DNA from: Halomonas alkaliantarctica
GTDB lineage: Bacteria; Pseudomonadota; Gammaproteobacteria; Pseudomonadales; Halomonadaceae
Direction: 5' to 3'
Assembly (NCBI RefSeq): GCF_029854215.1
Contig: NZ_CP122961.1
Coordinates: 1,488,001-1,552,000 of the forward strand
Length of the DNA: 64,000 bases
The notes below the pieces were generated by a model. It was not told the origin of the DNA, did not search any database, and saw nothing but the letters and a program-made list of their open reading frames with translations. Shown here piece after piece: positions 22,059-28,157 of this stretch; position 1 is the first letter of the stretch, and every line of letters starts with the position of its first letter. A program made the position numbers and the translations under genes.

Positions 22059-22149
22059 ACGTTTCGTGCCGTTAATGGGTTGTTCTGCTAACTGGTATCG
22101 CTAACCTAATCTTTTTTTATTAGTGTTTGACGATCCAAGGGGCAGTTTG

Positions 22150-24249
22150 ATGGCAGGCGGCACTGGCTTACAATTTACCCTAATGCTCCCCGGTATTGAT
22201 GATATCGCGGTGATCGATTTCACCCATCGCGAGGCGCTCTCCCAGCCCTTTGAGCTGGTGCTGAACCTGGCGAGCCGGGACGGCAGTCTTGATGCTGCTG
22301 AACTGCTGGATCGCGAAGCCACCCTGACCATCTGGCAGGACGGCGAACCGCTGCGTCGAGTACACGGTATCGTTAGCGAATTTGGCCGGGGTGACCGAGG
22401 ACACCGCCGCACCTTCTACTCCCTGGTGCTGCGCCCCGCGCTATGGCGGCTCTCGCTGCGCCAGAACTCGCGTATTTTCCAAAAAGCCGACCCGCTCACC
22501 ATCATTAATACCCTCTGCGATGAACGCGGCATTACCGACGTGTCCTTTGCGGTCACCCGCGAGCCGGAGCAGCGGGAGTATTGCGTTCAGTATCGCGAAA
22601 CCGACCTCGCCTTTATCGAACGCCTGGCCGCCGAAGAAGGTCTCTTCTACTTCCATGAATTTGAAGCGCGTGACGGCGGCGCCCACCGGCTGATCTTCGC
22701 CGACGATCCCCAAGTGCTGGTAAGCGTTGGCGAACGCTCCTACCACAGCCGGGCGGGAGGCACCGCCCCCATGCGCCATGTACGCAAACTCAGCCACACC
22801 GCTAGAGTCGCCGCCGCTTCCGCCACGCTGAAGGATTACAGCTTTAAAAATCCAGCGTATGCGCAGCTGCATGAACACCTGGGCCGTGATGTTGAGCAAC
22901 ACGGCCAAAACGCTGACTACGAGCACTACGACTACCCCGGCCGCTATAAGCAGGATGCCTCTGGCAAGCCCTTTACCCGCATCCGTTTAGAACAGCTACG
23001 CCGTGAAGCGCTCACCGCCAACGCCGAAAGTGACCTGCCCGAATTCGCCCCTGGCCTGCGCTTCACGCTGACCGACCACGACACCGAAAGCCTCAACCGC
23101 GACTGGCAGGCCATTGAAGTAAGCCACTTCGGCGAACAGCCCCAGGCGCTGGAAGAAGACGGGATGACGCAGGGCGACGTGGACGGCATGACCCGCTACC
23201 ACAACCAGGTCACGCTGATCCCCGGTGATGCCCCCTGGCGAGCAACGCCGAATCCCAAACCCCGCGTCGATGGCCCCCAAGTGGCCTTTGTGGTGGGCCC
23301 CGAAGGCGAAGAGATTCACTGCGACGAACACGGCCGAGTCAAAGTCCAGTTCCCCTGGGACCGCTACGCAGAGCCAAATGACACGGCGAGCTGCTGGGTA
23401 CGCGTCGCCCAAGGCTGGGCAGGCGGTGGCTACGGCAGTATCGCCATTCCGCGTATTGGCCATGAAGTGATTATTTCTTTTTTAGAAGGCGACCCGGATC
23501 AGCCACTGATCACCGGGCGTACCTACCACGCGGTGAATACCGCACCTTATCCGCTGCCGGAACACAAAACCCGCACGGTGCTGCGCACCCAAAGCCACAA
23601 GGCTGAAGGCTTCAACGAACTGCGCTTCGAAGACGAAGCAGGCGAAGAACAGATTTGGCTCCACGCCCAGAAAGACCTGGAGCTGTTAACGCTTAACGAC
23701 CGCACCGAAGAGATTCGCAACGACAGCCACCTCAAGGTGCACAACGACCGCATCAGCGAGATTGATAACGATAACCACCATACGGTGCACAGCAACCGCC
23801 ACACGCAGGTAGACGGCGACGACTACCTCATCGTGAACGGCACGCGCCACGAGAAAGTTGGTCAGGCGCAGCTGATGGAAGCAGGACGAGAAATTCATCA
23901 AAAATCCGGCGCCAAAACCGTCATTGATGCCGGGGCAGAGATCACCCTCAAAGCCGGGGGCAGCTTTATAAAACTCGACCCTAGCGGCATTACGATTGTA
24001 GGCGCCCAGGTCAAGATCAACTCTGGGGGGAGCCCCGGCACCGGTAGTGGGCAATCGGTAATAGGTGCCTTATTACCTGGCCATGTTGCCACTGAGCGGC
24101 ACGAACGAATTGATCCTTTACAGCAAGACCAACTACTGACAGCAGCGATGCAAGGCGCTGCCGTGGTAGAAATATGCCAACGGCTGAAGGACGGCAATAA
24201 CGATAATGTTGATCGCTGTGCCTTGGGAGATCAGTGCCCATGTCGCTAA
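22150..24249 (+). CDS. vgrG: Type VI secretion system tip protein VgrG
   Basis: Protein of 699 residues with the full VgrG plan: an N-terminal gp27-like region (DRGHRRTFYSLVLRPALWRL, EQREYCVQYRETDLAFIERL), a gp5 OB-fold (EGEEIHCDEHGRVKVQFPWD, SCWVRVAQGWAGGGYGS) and a beta-helical needle with repeated short segments. The core ends near ITLKAGGSFIKLDPSGITI. A roughly 70-residue tail follows, finishing in a Cys-containing stretch (CALGDQCPCR). AAGGGG lies 7 nt before the ATG at 22150; the in-frame GTG at 22123 is rejected. It trimerises to form the puncture tip and carries cargo; the next gene encodes the matching DUF4123 adaptor. No T6SS sheath, baseplate or ATPase genes are in the window, so it depends on a system elsewhere. 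Confidence 0.95.
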   Translation: MAGGTGLQFTLMLPGIDDIAVIDFTHREALSQPFELVLNLASRDGSLDAAELLDREATLTIWQDGEPLRRVHGIVSEFGRGDRGHRRTFYSLVLRPALWRLSLRQNSRIFQKADPLTIINTLCDERGITDVSFAVTREPEQREYCVQYRETDLAFIERLAAEEGLFYFHEFEARDGGAHRLIFADDPQVLVSVGERSYHSRAGGTAPMRHVRKLSHTARVAAASATLKDYSFKNPAYAQLHEHLGRDVEQHGQNADYEHYDYPGRYKQDASGKPFTRIRLEQLRREALTANAESDLPEFAPGLRFTLTDHDTESLNRDWQAIEVSHFGEQPQALEEDGMTQGDVDGMTRYHNQVTLIPGDAPWRATPNPKPRVDGPQVAFVVGPEGEEIHCDEHGRVKVQFPWDRYAEPNDTASCWVRVAQGWAGGGYGSIAIPRIGHEVIISFLEGDPDQPLITGRTYHAVNTAPYPLPEHKTRTVLRTQSHKAEGFNELRFEDEAGEEQIWLHAQKDLELLTLNDRTEEIRNDSHLKVHNDRISEIDNDNHHTVHSNRHTQVDGDDYLIVNGTRHEKVGQAQLMEAGREIHQKSGAKTVIDAGAEITLKAGGSFIKLDPSGITIVGAQVKINSGGSPGTGSGQSVIGALLPGHVATERHERIDPLQQDQLLTAAMQGAAVVEICQRLKDGNNDNVDRCALGDQCPCR

Positions 24250-25046
24250 GAACACCCCCAATGTCGGTCTTTTATTTGATCGACTTGGCCCTTTATCCGC
24301 AGCTGTCGCAACAGCTATTTGCTATAGATGAAAGCCCTGTCTATGAACGGTTGTATCTGCAAACGGCCTACGCACGTTATGCGCAACAAGGCCCGATTCT
24401 GTTCAGCCCTTCAAATGGCAGTGCCCATGTTGCCGCTGCACGTTGGGTGCAGCAGGGAGCCGCTATCGCACTGCACACACGTGCAACGCTTTCAGAAGTT
24501 GCCAAGCATTACCGGCAACTCACCCATGTCGAACGCCAAACGGGCCCTCCCGCCTTGTTTCGTTATGCCGATTCGCGGATATATGTCGGTCTAGTCAGTG
24601 GTTTGACCGAGGGCGAAACGCACGCATTGCTGGGGCCTATCAACGTAATGAATGGCGTGGCCAACGGTGAAGCATGGCAGCTCGAATCACCAGCCCCTGA
24701 TGATGAGCCGCCGGGCAAGTTCAAATTGACGGCTGACCATGAGCAGGCATTTCAGCGCAAGCGTGAGCAAACGTTTTGCCAGCAGTTGGCCAGTGATCAT
24801 GGCGTTGCATTATCACAAGCGCAGCAATGGTTACAGCAAATGAAAGCGCTACCCCTCACGACGGAATATGCGCGTTGGGAAGGGTGCCAGATTCTTGCTG
24901 CATCAGACTACCCTGAGCCGCTTTCGTCACGCCATATGCAGCAACTGTCGTCCTATGGCGGCTCCTGGCAAGCGTTGCTGGGTGAGTTAAAGATGTTGAC
25001 CAGCGAGCAAGCCCCTTTAGTAGACACTGATGGTGACGACAGATGA
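24240..25046 (+). CDS. DUF4123 T6SS effector adaptor/chaperone
   Basis: Protein of 268 residues. The N-terminal part (VFYLIDLALYPQL, PVYERLYLQTAYARY, GPILFSPS) and the RYADSRIYVGLV block fit the DUF4123 adaptor family, which loads effectors onto a cognate VgrG tip. A C-terminal helical segment follows (about 155-265). Its ATG overlaps the end of vgrG by 10 nt and its stop overlaps the effector start by 4 nt, a tightly coupled vgrG-adaptor-effector order. GGGAGA precedes the ATG at 24240; a second ATG at 24261 is possible. It should act in the cytoplasm and not be injected itself. Confidence 0.85.
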   Translation: MSLRTPPMSVFYLIDLALYPQLSQQLFAIDESPVYERLYLQTAYARYAQQGPILFSPSNGSAHVAAARWVQQGAAIALHTRATLSEVAKHYRQLTHVERQTGPPALFRYADSRIYVGLVSGLTEGETHALLGPINVMNGVANGEAWQLESPAPDDEPPGKFKLTADHEQAFQRKREQTFCQQLASDHGVALSQAQQWLQQMKALPLTTEYARWEGCQILAASDYPEPLSSRHMQQLSSYGGSWQALLGELKMLTSEQAPLVDTDGDDR

Positions 25047-26938
25047 CCGAAACATTATCACAACCGCCATTACAGCCCAGCCGAACAAGCGATACCGGCG
25101 TCAGCGTACCTGCCCACTGCAGCGTGGGGGTTATCGTATTGATCGTGCATAGCGATACATTGGGCCGCTATTTGCCCGAAGGCACGATGGTTAGGTTGGT
25201 CGATTCTGCGGGTAAGACTTACAGCGCGATCATTGATGCCGAAGGCATTAGCCGTCACGAAGGCGTGGCGCCAGGAAAGGTCGCTTGGCAATTAGTAAAT
25301 ACTCATGGACAGCACCTAGTAGCCGTTGATGATGAGCCGCTGGATCCGTGTCGAGCGGCGGCAGCGCCGCCTGAAATCGATGTAGCCATGGATGAAACGA
25401 CAATCCAGGCGACCTATCTGCCCCCGCCGATCAGCCTCAATCTGCGTGACGAAGTAACGTCGACTGAGGCCGATTTACTGAGTGATGAGCAACTGGAACA
25501 GCTGCGTTTGGCGGGCAACAACGCCACGCTGTTTTTGCATGGCTACAATGTCCCGCTAGGCCAGCATGGCGTTTTTGCTTCTTGGGATAAGCGCACCGAT
25601 ATCAGTGCTGAACCCTTATTAACCACTGCCCATATGGCAAGTAGTGCCACAATTCTTCAAGATATCGACAAGGTCGATATCCAAGTGCCTGTTAATAGAG
25701 GATATGTAGCAAGCAATTTATATCATACGCCGACAGAAAATGGATCGGACGAGTACCGTGATGCGTATTGTAACGGCAGTGGAGCGTATAACTGGTTCGT
25801 TCACATGGAGCATCGGCTCAATCTTGCTGCTGGAATGAATGAGGAGGATTGGCGACCCTATACCCGTATGGTTGGGATCGCGTGGTTGGGCGATACCGGG
25901 AGCGTCGATTTTTTCCAGGCTGAACTCAATGCTATGGCGGCAGGACGGCGTTTGGTTGCCTTGTTGGAGCAGCTTAACGACGCGGGCATCGCTATCAATA
26001 TCATTAGCCACTCGCTGGGCGCACGCGTGGTACTGACGGCCCTCAATATCCTCGGAGAGCAAGAGCGCCATCAATGGATCGACAATATTTATTTATGGGA
26101 ACCAGCGGTTGCCGATAACGCGCTAGTCAACGATGCCTCGCAGGACAGCCACCCGCTGGGCATGGGTGTTTTCCCCGACGCACACAAAGCGGTGAAAAAA
26201 GTGGTGGTGTTGCACTCCGAGGAAGATGGCATTCTCGGTCCGCCACCGCAGGACAGCCCTTCCTTCTGGCAACAGGTAGCTGAAATCATCAGTCCCGCAG
26301 CAGTGTGGGCACACGAGTTATTCAGTGCCGATGATATGTTGGATGAGCTAATCGGCTCATTTGGAGGTGCTTACGGCAAAAAGTGGTGGACATTCCCCGC
26401 CGGCCTGTCGACCCCCTTCATCCGGTACTACAGCAATAAGGCACCAGCCGATACGGTGAGTCCTCCTGTGCCTCAGCCCATACCGGTCGGCCCTGACCCT
26501 TATGGCAGAGAACGCGCCGCACGTGCTTGGCAGGAATTCAGAGCGCTGGCGATTGAGGAAGCGCGAGAGGCACTTGCTAGTGCCAACCCGCTACCCACTT
26601 ATGACCTGTTAGCACCGCTAGCCCACCACGCCGTGGTGAGCGAAGAGCGAGCAGCTGCGTATATCGATACCCTGCAGTGGCTAGTAGGCAGAAACTGGCG
26701 CGCAGGAAAAAGCCCTCGTCCAGCGCTTGGAAGTATTGGGTTTGGTGAGGTGAGAACCGAAAAAGATTTTATTCGAAATAGGCTTGATAGAAAGGTTTTT
26801 GATTTTGTTGACCAGACACTATGGCTCTTTGACCACTCGGGAATGAAAGTCCCTAGCGATGAGGTGTTTGGGAAGAGCTATCAGGAAGGGATCGTTGATC
26901 GGATAAAGGAGACATCACGCTTTGGTCGCTATGAATAA
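25043..26938 (+). CDS. Putative T6SS lipase-like effector (alpha/beta hydrolase)
   Basis: Protein of 631 residues without signal peptide. Residues 25-110 form a beta-rich domain. From about 155 an alpha/beta-hydrolase core begins with the oxyanion-region motif TLFLHGYNVPLG. The nucleophile elbow is IISHSLGARV, with Ser324 in a SxSxG variant of GxSxG, in a DUF900-like context. A likely acid residue lies in VVLHSEEDGILG (about 387-399). A C-terminal region of about 160 residues, largely helical, matches nothing I recognise. Position directly after a DUF4123 adaptor and before an exported membrane-anchored protein argues for an antibacterial phospholipase/esterase effector (Tle-like). The family number is not assignable, and the activity is inferred. 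The 3' end is more AT-rich than neighbouring genes. Confidence 0.75.
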   Translation: MTETLSQPPLQPSRTSDTGVSVPAHCSVGVIVLIVHSDTLGRYLPEGTMVRLVDSAGKTYSAIIDAEGISRHEGVAPGKVAWQLVNTHGQHLVAVDDEPLDPCRAAAAPPEIDVAMDETTIQATYLPPPISLNLRDEVTSTEADLLSDEQLEQLRLAGNNATLFLHGYNVPLGQHGVFASWDKRTDISAEPLLTTAHMASSATILQDIDKVDIQVPVNRGYVASNLYHTPTENGSDEYRDAYCNGSGAYNWFVHMEHRLNLAAGMNEEDWRPYTRMVGIAWLGDTGSVDFFQAELNAMAAGRRLVALLEQLNDAGIAINIISHSLGARVVLTALNILGEQERHQWIDNIYLWEPAVADNALVNDASQDSHPLGMGVFPDAHKAVKKVVVLHSEEDGILGPPPQDSPSFWQQVAEIISPAAVWAHELFSADDMLDELIGSFGGAYGKKWWTFPAGLSTPFIRYYSNKAPADTVSPPVPQPIPVGPDPYGRERAARAWQEFRALAIEEAREALASANPLPTYDLLAPLAHHAVVSEERAAAYIDTLQWLVGRNWRAGKSPRPALGSIGFGEVRTEKDFIRNRLDRKVFDFVDQTLWLFDHSGMKVPSDEVFGKSYQEGIVDRIKETSRFGRYE

Positions 26939-28157
26939 GCAAAAATTTGCTGCTTTGATACTCGTTGTTGGCACCGTATTAGCCTTGGCCTATTACGGAG
27001 TACGGGCACTCACTGGGCTTGAGCCAGCTACCTCGCTAAGCATGTCCAGCGATGGTCGCTATGTGATCTCTGCCCACGAAGATGGGGCTTTGGTGCTGTG
27101 GGATATAGAAGATCAGCAAAAGGAGCAACTGGCCGATAATGCGAACCTTTATAGTGCTTACTTTATTCCCGAAGGCGACGTTTTTCTCTGGCAGGATCAA
27201 GATGATGTGGTTTATGTACAGCGCGTCAATGGAGATGTGGTTGAGGAATTTGAGCACTTCCCCACTTACGGGCATGTAATGTCCGTCGATAGGCAACATT
27301 ACCTTTCCAGCAACAAAACCTGGAACATTTATCATGGGCATGGCGATGCTTTACGTCCCGTGTTACTCGATAGCCACAGTCCCAGCTTTACCGGCACCGG
27401 GCAAGTCTTGAATTTGTCGATGGGCGGCGACTTTTTTGTCTCCGGTGGCTCGGGAAGCCCAGGGGGAGAGCTTACAGACTCCCCGCCGGTGAGAGAAGAA
27501 GGCGAGTTTCGTTTTTCCTCCAGCTATGGCGGGGTGACGTTATGGGATATTGATACCTTGGAACCCGTGGCTAAACTGCCGGGTAACTCTTCGAAAACCT
27601 ATGCCACCATCAGCCCTGACGGGGATTGGGTGGTTAGTGGCGACGAGAATGGTATTGGACTTTTCTGGGACACGAATTCGCCAGAAAATCGCATGCGTCT
27701 AGCGGATTATGATCATGGTGTTTTTCTCCAAGATCTACCAGAGGGCTTACCTGAGAACCAATATAGGGATAAAAGTGAGCTGATCCCCGTACCAGAGTCT
27801 ACCAAGCCGGACAAATGGGGAAGTATCCGCTCCTTGGCTACTCCTACAACAATCGCCTTGGCTTTTATCAATGGTAGCGAAGAGTTTTTACGTATTGGCC
27901 ATGCCCAATACGAAGGCGAGGACATGAGTCGCACCTATGCAGCACTGTTCGAAGCTGGCAACCCCTGGCCTCAGGCGTACCTTGATCTGGGCACTGATCC
28001 TTTTCCTTCGGTCAATAACTACTCCCGCAATTTAAGCATCGATTCAGCCCCGGACGCTAACCTGCTGGTCACCGGGCATGCCTTCGATGGCGGCATCACC
28101 GTGTACCGTTATGACCCTGAAGAGCGCACGCTAGCCAAGGAGTGGGTGGGGCGTTGA
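26931..28157 (+). CDS. Membrane-anchored WD/beta-propeller protein, candidate immunity protein
   Basis: About 408 residues. One N-terminal hydrophobic helix (LILVVGTVLALAYYGVRAL) acts as anchor or uncleaved signal, with the bulk predicted outside the cytoplasm. WD-like blades are visible: SMSSDGRYVISAHEDGALVL ending in WDIED, GVTLWDIDTLEPVAKLPG, and SPDGDWVVSGDENGIGLFWD. It overlaps the effector by 8 nt. A TTG at 26922 is also in frame and lies 10 nt after AAGGAG, so the protein may start three codons earlier. Periplasmic exposure fits neutralisation of an injected periplasmic lipase. The immunity role comes from gene order only; immunity proteins of known lipase effectors are usually other folds. 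Confidence 0.65.
   Translation: MNKQKFAALILVVGTVLALAYYGVRALTGLEPATSLSMSSDGRYVISAHEDGALVLWDIEDQQKEQLADNANLYSAYFIPEGDVFLWQDQDDVVYVQRVNGDVVEEFEHFPTYGHVMSVDRQHYLSSNKTWNIYHGHGDALRPVLLDSHSPSFTGTGQVLNLSMGGDFFVSGGSGSPGGELTDSPPVREEGEFRFSSSYGGVTLWDIDTLEPVAKLPGNSSKTYATISPDGDWVVSGDENGIGLFWDTNSPENRMRLADYDHGVFLQDLPEGLPENQYRDKSELIPVPESTKPDKWGSIRSLATPTTIALAFINGSEEFLRIGHAQYEGEDMSRTYAALFEAGNPWPQAYLDLGTDPFPSVNNYSRNLSIDSAPDANLLVTGHAFDGGITVYRYDPEERTLAKEWVGR

What the first reader, a model, noticed from the sequence alone, without database searches (positions are those of the whole stretch)
22150..28157. Orphan T6SS cargo module: VgrG, DUF4123 adaptor, lipase-like effector, beta-propeller partner
Four overlapping or adjacent genes on one strand form a complete tip-adaptor-toxin-immunity set without any structural T6SS gene nearby, inserted between housekeeping genes. 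The effector has an alpha/beta-hydrolase core with Ser324 in ISHSLG rather than the usual GxSxG, plus an unrecognised C-terminal region of about 160 residues, so it may be a new lipase/esterase effector type.
Basis: partly seen in the sequence, partly recalled or inferred. Interest (0 to 1): 0.8.

Follow-up and report, generated by a model that had tools for sequence, protein, structure and literature searches.

The report
Bacterial lipase weapon with swappable tail
This is a small gene set that probably lets a salt-loving bacterium inject a membrane-attacking enzyme into rival bacteria while a propeller-shaped partner protects its own cells; the cargo-gene layout is a known kind, but the enzyme-plus-protector pair looks like a new variety whose matching ends seem to be exchanged between strains as one piece.

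Summary
In detail: vgrG, DUF4123 adaptor, alpha/beta-hydrolase and WD40 genes lie head to tail at 22150-28157. The genome (4.23 Mb, Halomonas-like) holds a complete T6SS 2 Mb away, so this is an auxiliary cargo cluster, a known kind. The effector is probably an antibacterial phospholipase or esterase. Family homologues follow vgrG and DUF4123 (16 of 18 loci) and precede the WD40 gene (20 of 20); both families share 18 of 19 genomes among 275. Distant homologues are fused to VgrG, in genomes without the WD40 family. SHSLG is unremarkable (Tle3 has SHSQG). The 'unrecognised' C-terminus is no separate domain: it carries an invariant HSxM motif that probably supplies the catalytic His. New here: the effector's end and the first three quarters of the immunity gene seem to be exchanged as one unit. 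They fall to 53-82% nucleotide identity between two cassettes 95% identical upstream, the tail tracks the immunity protein, and orphan tail-immunity copies lie in tandem. Tle1 and Tle3 profiles do not reach their cut-offs. Verdict: real; a new variant of a known kind.

The parts
22150..24249 (+). vgrG (T6SS tip protein, 699 aa from the ATG; in-frame GTG at 22123)
   Evidence: TIGR03361 617 bits, Phage_GPD 282 bits (queried from the TTG at 22147, one codon longer); ATG context
24079..24249 (+). Cargo-specific C-terminal extension of VgrG (about 56 aa, ends CALGDQCPCR), approximate start
   Evidence: In G259 this part is replaced together with the cargo
24234..25046 (+). DUF4123 adaptor (Tap/Tla type)
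   Evidence: PF13503 3.9e-21; weak Tla1 NF053803 9.4e-9, 35 bits against a cut-off of 200
25043..26938 (+). Effector: alpha/beta-hydrolase, 631 aa, no signal peptide seen by eye
   Evidence: DUF900 in 15 of 15 aligned members at E<=0.1; VgrG fusions of homologues
25043..25432 (+). N-terminal region (residues 1-130), probable loading domain
   Evidence: Present in adaptor-linked copies, not matched in three VgrG-fused copies, where the match starts at profile positions 117-140; inference
26012..26014 (+). Codon of Ser324 (nucleophile, ISHSLG)
   Evidence: Invariant in A1 and A3
26213..26512 (+). Residues 391-490 (possible lid), tracks the adjacent immunity protein
   Evidence: Window Mantel r 0.71-0.78
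26225..26227 (+). Codon of Asp395 (candidate catalytic acid)
   Evidence: Invariant in A1 and A3
26741..26812 (+). Hypervariable segment, residues 567-590
   Evidence: 51% mean divergence in 13 close pairs against 12% in residues 131-420
26813..26854 (+). Motif [DN]Q..W...HSxM..P with His598 (codon 26834-26836), candidate catalytic His
   Evidence: Kept in 15 of 15 full-length copies, 3 of 3 VgrG fusions and 9 of 9 C-terminal pieces aligned
26931..28157 (+). WD40-repeat protein with N-terminal hydrophobic anchor, putative immunity protein
   Evidence: PF00400 35 bits; next to the effector in 20 of 20 family loci that hold its 3' end
27828..28157 (+). Conserved 3' arm of the immunity gene (about the last 110 codons)
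   Evidence: Copies become alike again here

Best explanation
A T6SS auxiliary cargo cluster. The adaptor (DUF4123) docks the hydrolase on the cargo-specific C-terminal extension of its own VgrG, and the tip is fired by the T6SS encoded 2 Mb away. The hydrolase then acts in the periplasm of the struck cell on membrane lipids as a serine phospholipase or esterase (Ser324-Asp395-His598). The membrane- or lipid-anchored WD40 propeller faces the periplasm and protects kin by binding the effector at its variable end. Effector end and immunity gene evolve as one matched unit that recombination replaces, leaving old tails and old immunity genes behind as tandem arrays. Shown by sequence: gene order, co-occurrence, VgrG fusion, invariant residues, mosaic divergence, tail-immunity covariation. 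Inferred: lipid substrate, periplasmic action, triad, binding, kin protection, and recombination as the cause of the mosaic.
For: Order vgrG-DUF4123-effector in 16 of 18 family loci that hold the effector's 5' end, WD40 directly behind in 20 of 20 that hold its 3' end. VgrG-hydrolase fusions in distant genomes: L088 and L087 clear, L086 weaker. Effector and WD40 families are each in 19 of 275 genomes, 18 shared. tssC found in 16 of 19 effector genomes against 106 of the other 256. Complete T6SS in the own genome. WD40 copies carry a hydrophobic anchor, or a lipobox-like Cys in genera g14 and g15 (read by eye). Tail distance follows immunity distance (r 0.785, p 0.0024, n=8; partial on core 0.78, p 0.0044) while core distance does not (0.22, p 0.12).
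Against: DUF900 similarity of the window protein is borderline and a 2024 survey calls the function of DUF900 unknown (PMC11878206, passage). Three effector genomes (G145, G147, G153) show no tssC. Loci L055 and L062 have no vgrG or DUF4123 gene beside them. Three VgrG-fused homologues come from genomes without a WD40 hit (one of these genomes is 85% complete), so WD40 is not universal. Counts are not corrected for shared ancestry, and the covariation test has only eight pairs.
Confidence: 0.85

Rival explanations
1. The effector acts mainly on eukaryotic predators or hosts, and the WD40 protein is a helper (membrane anchor or co-factor), not an immunity protein.
For: VgrG-fused homologues G718, G860 and G759 have no WD40 hit in their genomes, as expected of effectors that need no antibacterial immunity.
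Against: WD40 occurs in tandem arrays of divergent copies, is kept when the effector is displaced (L060), and covaries with the effector tail, all typical of immunity genes.
Confidence: 0.08
2. A divergent member of the Tle3 phospholipase family rather than a separate family.
For: Same xHSxG variant and similar order and spacing of the candidate Ser, Asp and His; PF24322 hits 9 of 15 members weakly (best 0.0046) and the fusion L086 at 1.2e-4; Tle3 triad from PMC9860674 (passages).
Against: 14.7 bits for the window protein and 22.2 for L086 against a cut-off of 27; nothing named Tle3 among solved chains at E<=10 (whether that structure is in the copy was not checked); DUF900 scores higher (up to 60.7 bits). 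The Asp that precedes the Tle3 catalytic His and binds the cation is Asn, Glu, Ala or Ser in 7 of 15 copies here.
Confidence: 0.3
3. An intracellular housekeeping hydrolase whose position behind vgrG is accidental.
For: Weak matches in proteins without vgrG, DUF4123 or WD40 hits beside them exist (G136).
Against: Conserved cassette in several genera and VgrG fusions elsewhere.
Confidence: 0.02

Closest known systems
Tle3/Tli3 of adherent-invasive E. coli (PMC9860674, passages read)
   Same: T6SS alpha/beta-hydrolase with xHSxG nucleophile, late catalytic His, lipoprotein immunity, interaction with its VgrG
   Different: Sequence match below the family cut-off; immunity here is a WD40 protein; a switchable tail is not mentioned in the passages read
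Tle1-Tla1-VgrG4a of P. aeruginosa (PMC13133936, passages read)
   Same: vgrG and DUF4123 adaptor genes beside a lipase gene; the last residues of VgrG bind adaptor and toxin, as the co-swapped VgrG extension here suggests
   Different: No Tle1 profile hit at E<=1; immunity proteins there are DUF3304 lipoproteins
Vibrio cholerae auxiliary clusters and immunity gene arrays (PMC5361080, passages read)
   Same: vgrG-adaptor-effector-immunity clusters; displaced effectors leave immunity genes behind
   Different: Here the retained piece includes a conserved arm plus the end of the effector with its HSxM motif
Orphan vgrG5a module of Pseudomonas ogarae F113 (PMC10671463, passages read)
   Same: Same four-gene auxiliary layout away from the tss genes
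   Different: MATE-like effector and an immunity protein with three membrane segments
Beta-propeller inhibitors Tsi1, X-Tfi XAC2610 and PliI (PMC10933484, one passage read)
   Same: Propeller-fold inhibitors of enzymes that act in the periplasm
   Different: They inhibit peptidoglycan hydrolases; relation to this WD40 family not tested
DUF900 alpha/beta-hydrolases (PF05990; PMC11878206, passage read)
   Same: Profile match of the hydrolase core
   Different: That survey places the family in alphaproteobacteria and gives no function; here members are T6SS-linked and fused to VgrG

Membership tests
T6SS auxiliary cargo cluster | vgrG plus adaptor, effector and immunity genes away from the structural cluster, in a genome with a T6SS | tested here: met
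T6SS auxiliary cargo cluster | Effector secreted by the T6SS | not testable with these tools
   Needs a secretion assay
DUF4123 adaptor (Tap) | PF13503 above cut-off, between vgrG and effector | tested here: met
   75.9 bits against 25.8
DUF900 (PF05990) | Score above cut-off | tested here: met
   20.6 against 20.5, borderline; 35-61 bits in four distant homologues
Tle3 (PF24322) | Score above cut-off of 27 bits | tested here: not met
   14.7 bits; L086 22.2 bits
Tle3 (PF24322) | Ser-Asp-His triad geometry with a bound cation | not testable with these tools
Tle1 (PF09994) | Profile match | tested here: not met
   No hit at E<=1; the library does hold the model (it matched another protein)
Tle2, Tle4, Tle5 | Sequence match to the family | tested here: inconclusive
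   No such name among Pfam or NCBIfam hits at E<=1; presence of dedicated models not checked
WD40 repeat family | PF00400 above cut-off | tested here: met
   35.2 against 27
T6SS immunity protein | Neutralises the cognate effector | not testable with these tools
   Only adjacency, co-occurrence, arrays and covariation tested

The most novel reading that the evidence does not exclude
A switchable enzyme. The effector's last part (hypervariable segment plus the catalytic-His motif) and the first three quarters of the overlapping immunity gene form one recombination cassette, bounded by a conserved arm inside the effector and another at the end of the immunity gene. Orphan arm-tail-immunity copies kept in tandem are silent cassettes from which one double crossover could change toxin specificity and matching immunity together, even though the exchanged piece carries one residue of the active site.
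Probability: 0.4. Interest if true: 0.8.

Novelty: new variant of a known kind. Interest (0 to 1): 0.6.

Why it matters
If the tail of this enzyme and its propeller partner are exchanged as one unit, that explains how a single-domain toxin can change specificity without ever being unprotected, and it ties an unannotated hydrolase family (DUF900-like, function called unknown in a 2024 survey) to bacterial competition. The arrays give natural matched and mismatched pairs, so the rule 'tail decides immunity' can be tested directly.

Tried and rejected
Solved-structure searches by sequence: nothing for the effector and the adaptor alone, nothing credible for the A1 profile (best 0.16, a santalene synthase), for the A3 profile (best 0.14, an S-layer protein; lipases at E 0.53-2.4) or for L086 (best 0.95, a lipase); the WD40 profile hits 326 sequences at E<=0.01, the 60 shown being mostly eukaryotic WD40 proteins. 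Plasmid, phage and viral-contig searches with the effector found nothing, so spread by plasmid or phage was dropped as unsupported. A search for true Tle3 proteins to allow a profile-profile comparison gave 0 of 371 genomes over the cut-off and two weak hits, so that comparison could not be made. Defence-system profiles: none. The promoter scan gave four sites against 4.8 expected, the terminator scan ten against 6.3 (sd 2.9); neither was used. Positive point selection on the hypervariable segment is not supported: dN and dS rise together there, and dS could not be computed in 4 of 10 pairs. In the genus g15 nearly all effector windows correlate with immunity, so that group does not discriminate.
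Full report
What is there. Profiles name a VgrG (617 bits), a DUF4123 protein (75.9 bits), a hydrolase with borderline DUF900 similarity (20.6 against a cut-off of 20.5) and a WD40 protein. The genes overlap by 16, 4 and 8 bases, as in an operon. Flanks are a zinc-metallopeptidase gene and a methyltransferase gene (PF08003, cmoB by recall). G+C falls from 59% in vgrG to 52% in the WD40 gene; the window mean is 55%.

The machine. The window lies in a single-contig 4.23 Mb genome at 1.488-1.552 Mb. The one named relative found is Halomonas sp. HL-48 (85% identity in the best segment). The genome has four vgrG genes, three DUF4123 genes, and a structural cluster at about 3.52-3.55 Mb with tssA, B, C, E, F, G, J, K, L, M, hcp, a ClpB-type ATPase taken as tssH, a PAAR-lysozyme protein, and FHA and VasI proteins. 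The module is thus an auxiliary cluster served from a distance, a kind already described (PMC10671463 and PMC5361080; passages).

Distribution. The effector has relatives in 19 of 275 family genomes (own included), one of them (G136) only a weak generic match (4e-6). The WD40 family, searched by profile, is in 19 of 275, 18 of them shared; the odd ones are G136 and G149, the latter with a match of 44 positions in a 58-aa frame (Fisher 5e-26, ancestry not corrected). A tssC profile match is in 122 of 275 genomes (120 over the cut-off) and in 16 of 19 effector genomes; G145, G147 and G153 lack it (Fisher 4e-4). Outside the family, the profile found the own genome and one weak hit among 390 order genomes, and 12 of 369 class genomes, own included: five others below 1e-29 and six weak (2e-8 to 2e-4). 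No match in plasmid, phage or viral collections.

Neighbourhoods. I examined 21 effector loci in 18 family genomes, the window included (the duplicate record L010 and the weak G136 hit left out). Of 18 that hold the 5' end, 16 have DUF4123 and vgrG upstream; L055 and L062 do not. Of 20 that hold the 3' end, all 20 have a WD40 gene behind it, some of these cut by a contig end (e.g. L047) or in pieces (L057). Several loci are broken or cut (vgrG in two ORFs in L048, L053 and L058; effector in three ORFs in L057; N- and C-terminal pieces only in L063). One genome, G146, has two full-length effectors with different tails, each with its own WD40 gene (L054, L055). In distant genomes the hydrolase is fused to VgrG: L088 (213.6 bits to TIGR03361, above its cut-off), L087 (69.7 bits, below it; Phage_GPD 62.7, above its cut-off) and L086 (Phage_GPD 28.4 bits, just below its cut-off of 30.1). 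Those three genomes have no WD40 hit (G759 is 85% complete); G710 and G678 have both families.

The enzyme. Ser324 and Gly326 are invariant in 15 full-length homologues; the motif is SHSLG in 13 and GHSLG in 2, AHSLG or AHSQG in four distant ones. Asp395 is invariant as well. The C-terminal end carries [DN]Q..W...HSxM..P; His598 is kept in 15 of 15 full-length copies, in the three VgrG fusions and in nine of nine C-terminal pieces that I aligned; the contig-truncated L084 does not reach it, and the broken L057 was not in those alignments. I infer the triad Ser324-Asp395-His598. AIEC Tle3 has Ser265 (SHSQG), Asp377 and His574 (PMC9860674, passages), a similar plan. The Tle3 profile stays below its cut-off, so I do not file it as Tle3.

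Cargo swap at this very site. In G259 (L060) the same chromosomal site (flanking genes) holds a vgrG whose last part is that of another VgrG of the own genome, followed by that VgrG's 303-aa and 398-aa cargo pair (94% and 88% nucleotide identity to L042), then the last part of our effector (homology from about residue 474) and a full-length WD40 ORF. I read this as replacement of the toxin with retention of its immunity gene.

Tail and immunity go together. Among eight effectors of genera g1 and g8 with their adjacent WD40 protein, tail distance follows WD40 distance (r 0.785, p 0.0024; partial on core 0.78, p 0.0044), core distance does not (r 0.22, p 0.12). The WD40 copies fall into two types, A and B, in both genera. 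I assigned tail types by eye, mainly from the last 19 residues; they match the first WD40 type in 8 of 8. By overall tail identity L052 is not clear-cut (70% to an A tail, 71% to a B tail). As a check, the A/B split of the effectors has four fixed differences (residues 457, 620, 621, 626) and the other 19 splits of the same shape have none. Further copies in the arrays are of either type: L046.2 B, L048.2 A, L049.2 A, L050.2 B, L052.2 A, L052.3 B. By windows, residues 361-520 and 601-631 follow the immunity protein (p<=0.017) and the others do not; of 21 overlapping windows, not corrected for number, the best is 601-631 with r 0.91, p 0.0005. The hypervariable segment 567-590 is the most divergent (51% against 12% in 13 close pairs), but windows over it do not follow the immunity protein (541-580 and 571-610, r 0.19 and 0.04). 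In g15 nearly all windows correlate, which tells nothing.

One exchange unit. Between the orthologous cassettes of G147 (L053) and G153 (L056) nucleotide identity is 94.6% in vgrG (3' part), 95.0% in DUF4123, 94.9% in effector codons 1-571, then 75.7% in the effector tail (Fisher 5.5e-16), 69-82% in the first 960 or so bases of the WD40 gene and 88-93% in its end. The tandem orphan copy repeats the pattern: arm 93.9%, tail 72.5%, WD40 53-80% and then 94-100%. The next gene downstream is 88.9%, so the background is not uniform. The orphan ORF (214 codons) starts in the conserved arm, has its own overlapping WD40 gene, lacks Ser324, and shows dN/dS of 0.22, like the full-length gene (0.23). Synonymous divergence is highest in the hypervariable segment in the pairs where it can be computed, and uncomputable in 4 of 10; in L046/L010 it drops again to zero in residues 613-630, so there the exchanged piece is not the whole tail. 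In 8 of 9 same-genome tandem pairs of WD40 copies the last 300 bases are more alike than the rest (L048 equal); but this also holds, mostly less strongly, in 13 of 13 between-genome pairs that I chose, so a conserved end alone does not prove exchange. I read the whole as recombination exchanging tail plus immunity as one piece. The detailed mosaic rests on one orthologous pair, so the claim is moderate.

Known and new. Displacement of effectors with retained immunity genes is known in Vibrio cholerae, Tle lipases with DUF4123 adaptors are known, and propeller-fold inhibitors exist, among them Tsi1 of the T6SS (PMC10933484, one passage). A 2012 survey states that beta-propellers had not been found among polymorphic-toxin immunity proteins (PMC3482391, passage). 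A 2024 survey calls the function of DUF900 unknown (PMC11878206, passage); it was the only paper that holds both 'type VI secretion' and 'DUF900'. Searches for T6SS immunity with WD40, beta-propeller immunity with phospholipase or lipoprotein, Halomonas T6SS effectors (PMC13337758 read in passages, on regulation), type VI lipase effectors or DUF4123 and hypervariable specificity regions listed no description of this pair, judged from titles, starts of abstracts and the passages read. Lists were capped, and most subscription papers and all preprints are outside the library.

Noticed in passing
L042:2813-4929 (own genome, about 1.731-1.733 Mb) and L060:6341-8457: A second cargo pair behind a VgrG without DUF4123: a 303-aa protein with no significant Pfam hit and a 398-aa anchored protein with weak BNR/sortilin (propeller-type) similarity, perhaps another propeller immunity protein.
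   Followed up: partly
VgrG C-termini: window 24217-24249, and L040, L042, L043, L046, L010, L051, L053, L054, L056, L059, L060, L063: A C-x-L-x(2,3)-C-x-C tail ends 11 of 11 compared VgrGs that stand next to a DUF4123 gene and is missing in 2 of 2 without one; possible adaptor-docking signature.
   Followed up: partly
L086:7670-11272, L087:7806-11150, L088:6209-10702: VgrG-hydrolase fusion proteins (1114-1497 aa) from genomes of 1.3-2.4 Mb that have tssC but no WD40 hit.
   Followed up: partly
L043:6570-14001: A 1182-aa effector candidate with weak VasX_N similarity behind vgrG and DUF4123, followed by an array of repeated related ORFs (beginning with versions of YYADTAYKPAKR).
   Followed up: no
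G145, G147, G153 (L058, L053, L056): Cassette present, tssC not found; vgrG is in two ORFs in L053 and L058. Perhaps loss of the machine with immunity arrays retained.
   Followed up: no
L085:1463-4530 and L084:3-2066: A similar N-terminal stretch (VFDQFKFS...) begins both a hydrolase of this family and a 332-aa protein upstream of a Tle1-like gene; possible unrecognised loading domain.
   Followed up: no
L040:7812-8690 (own genome): PAAR protein fused to a phage-lysozyme domain next to the structural cluster.
   Followed up: no
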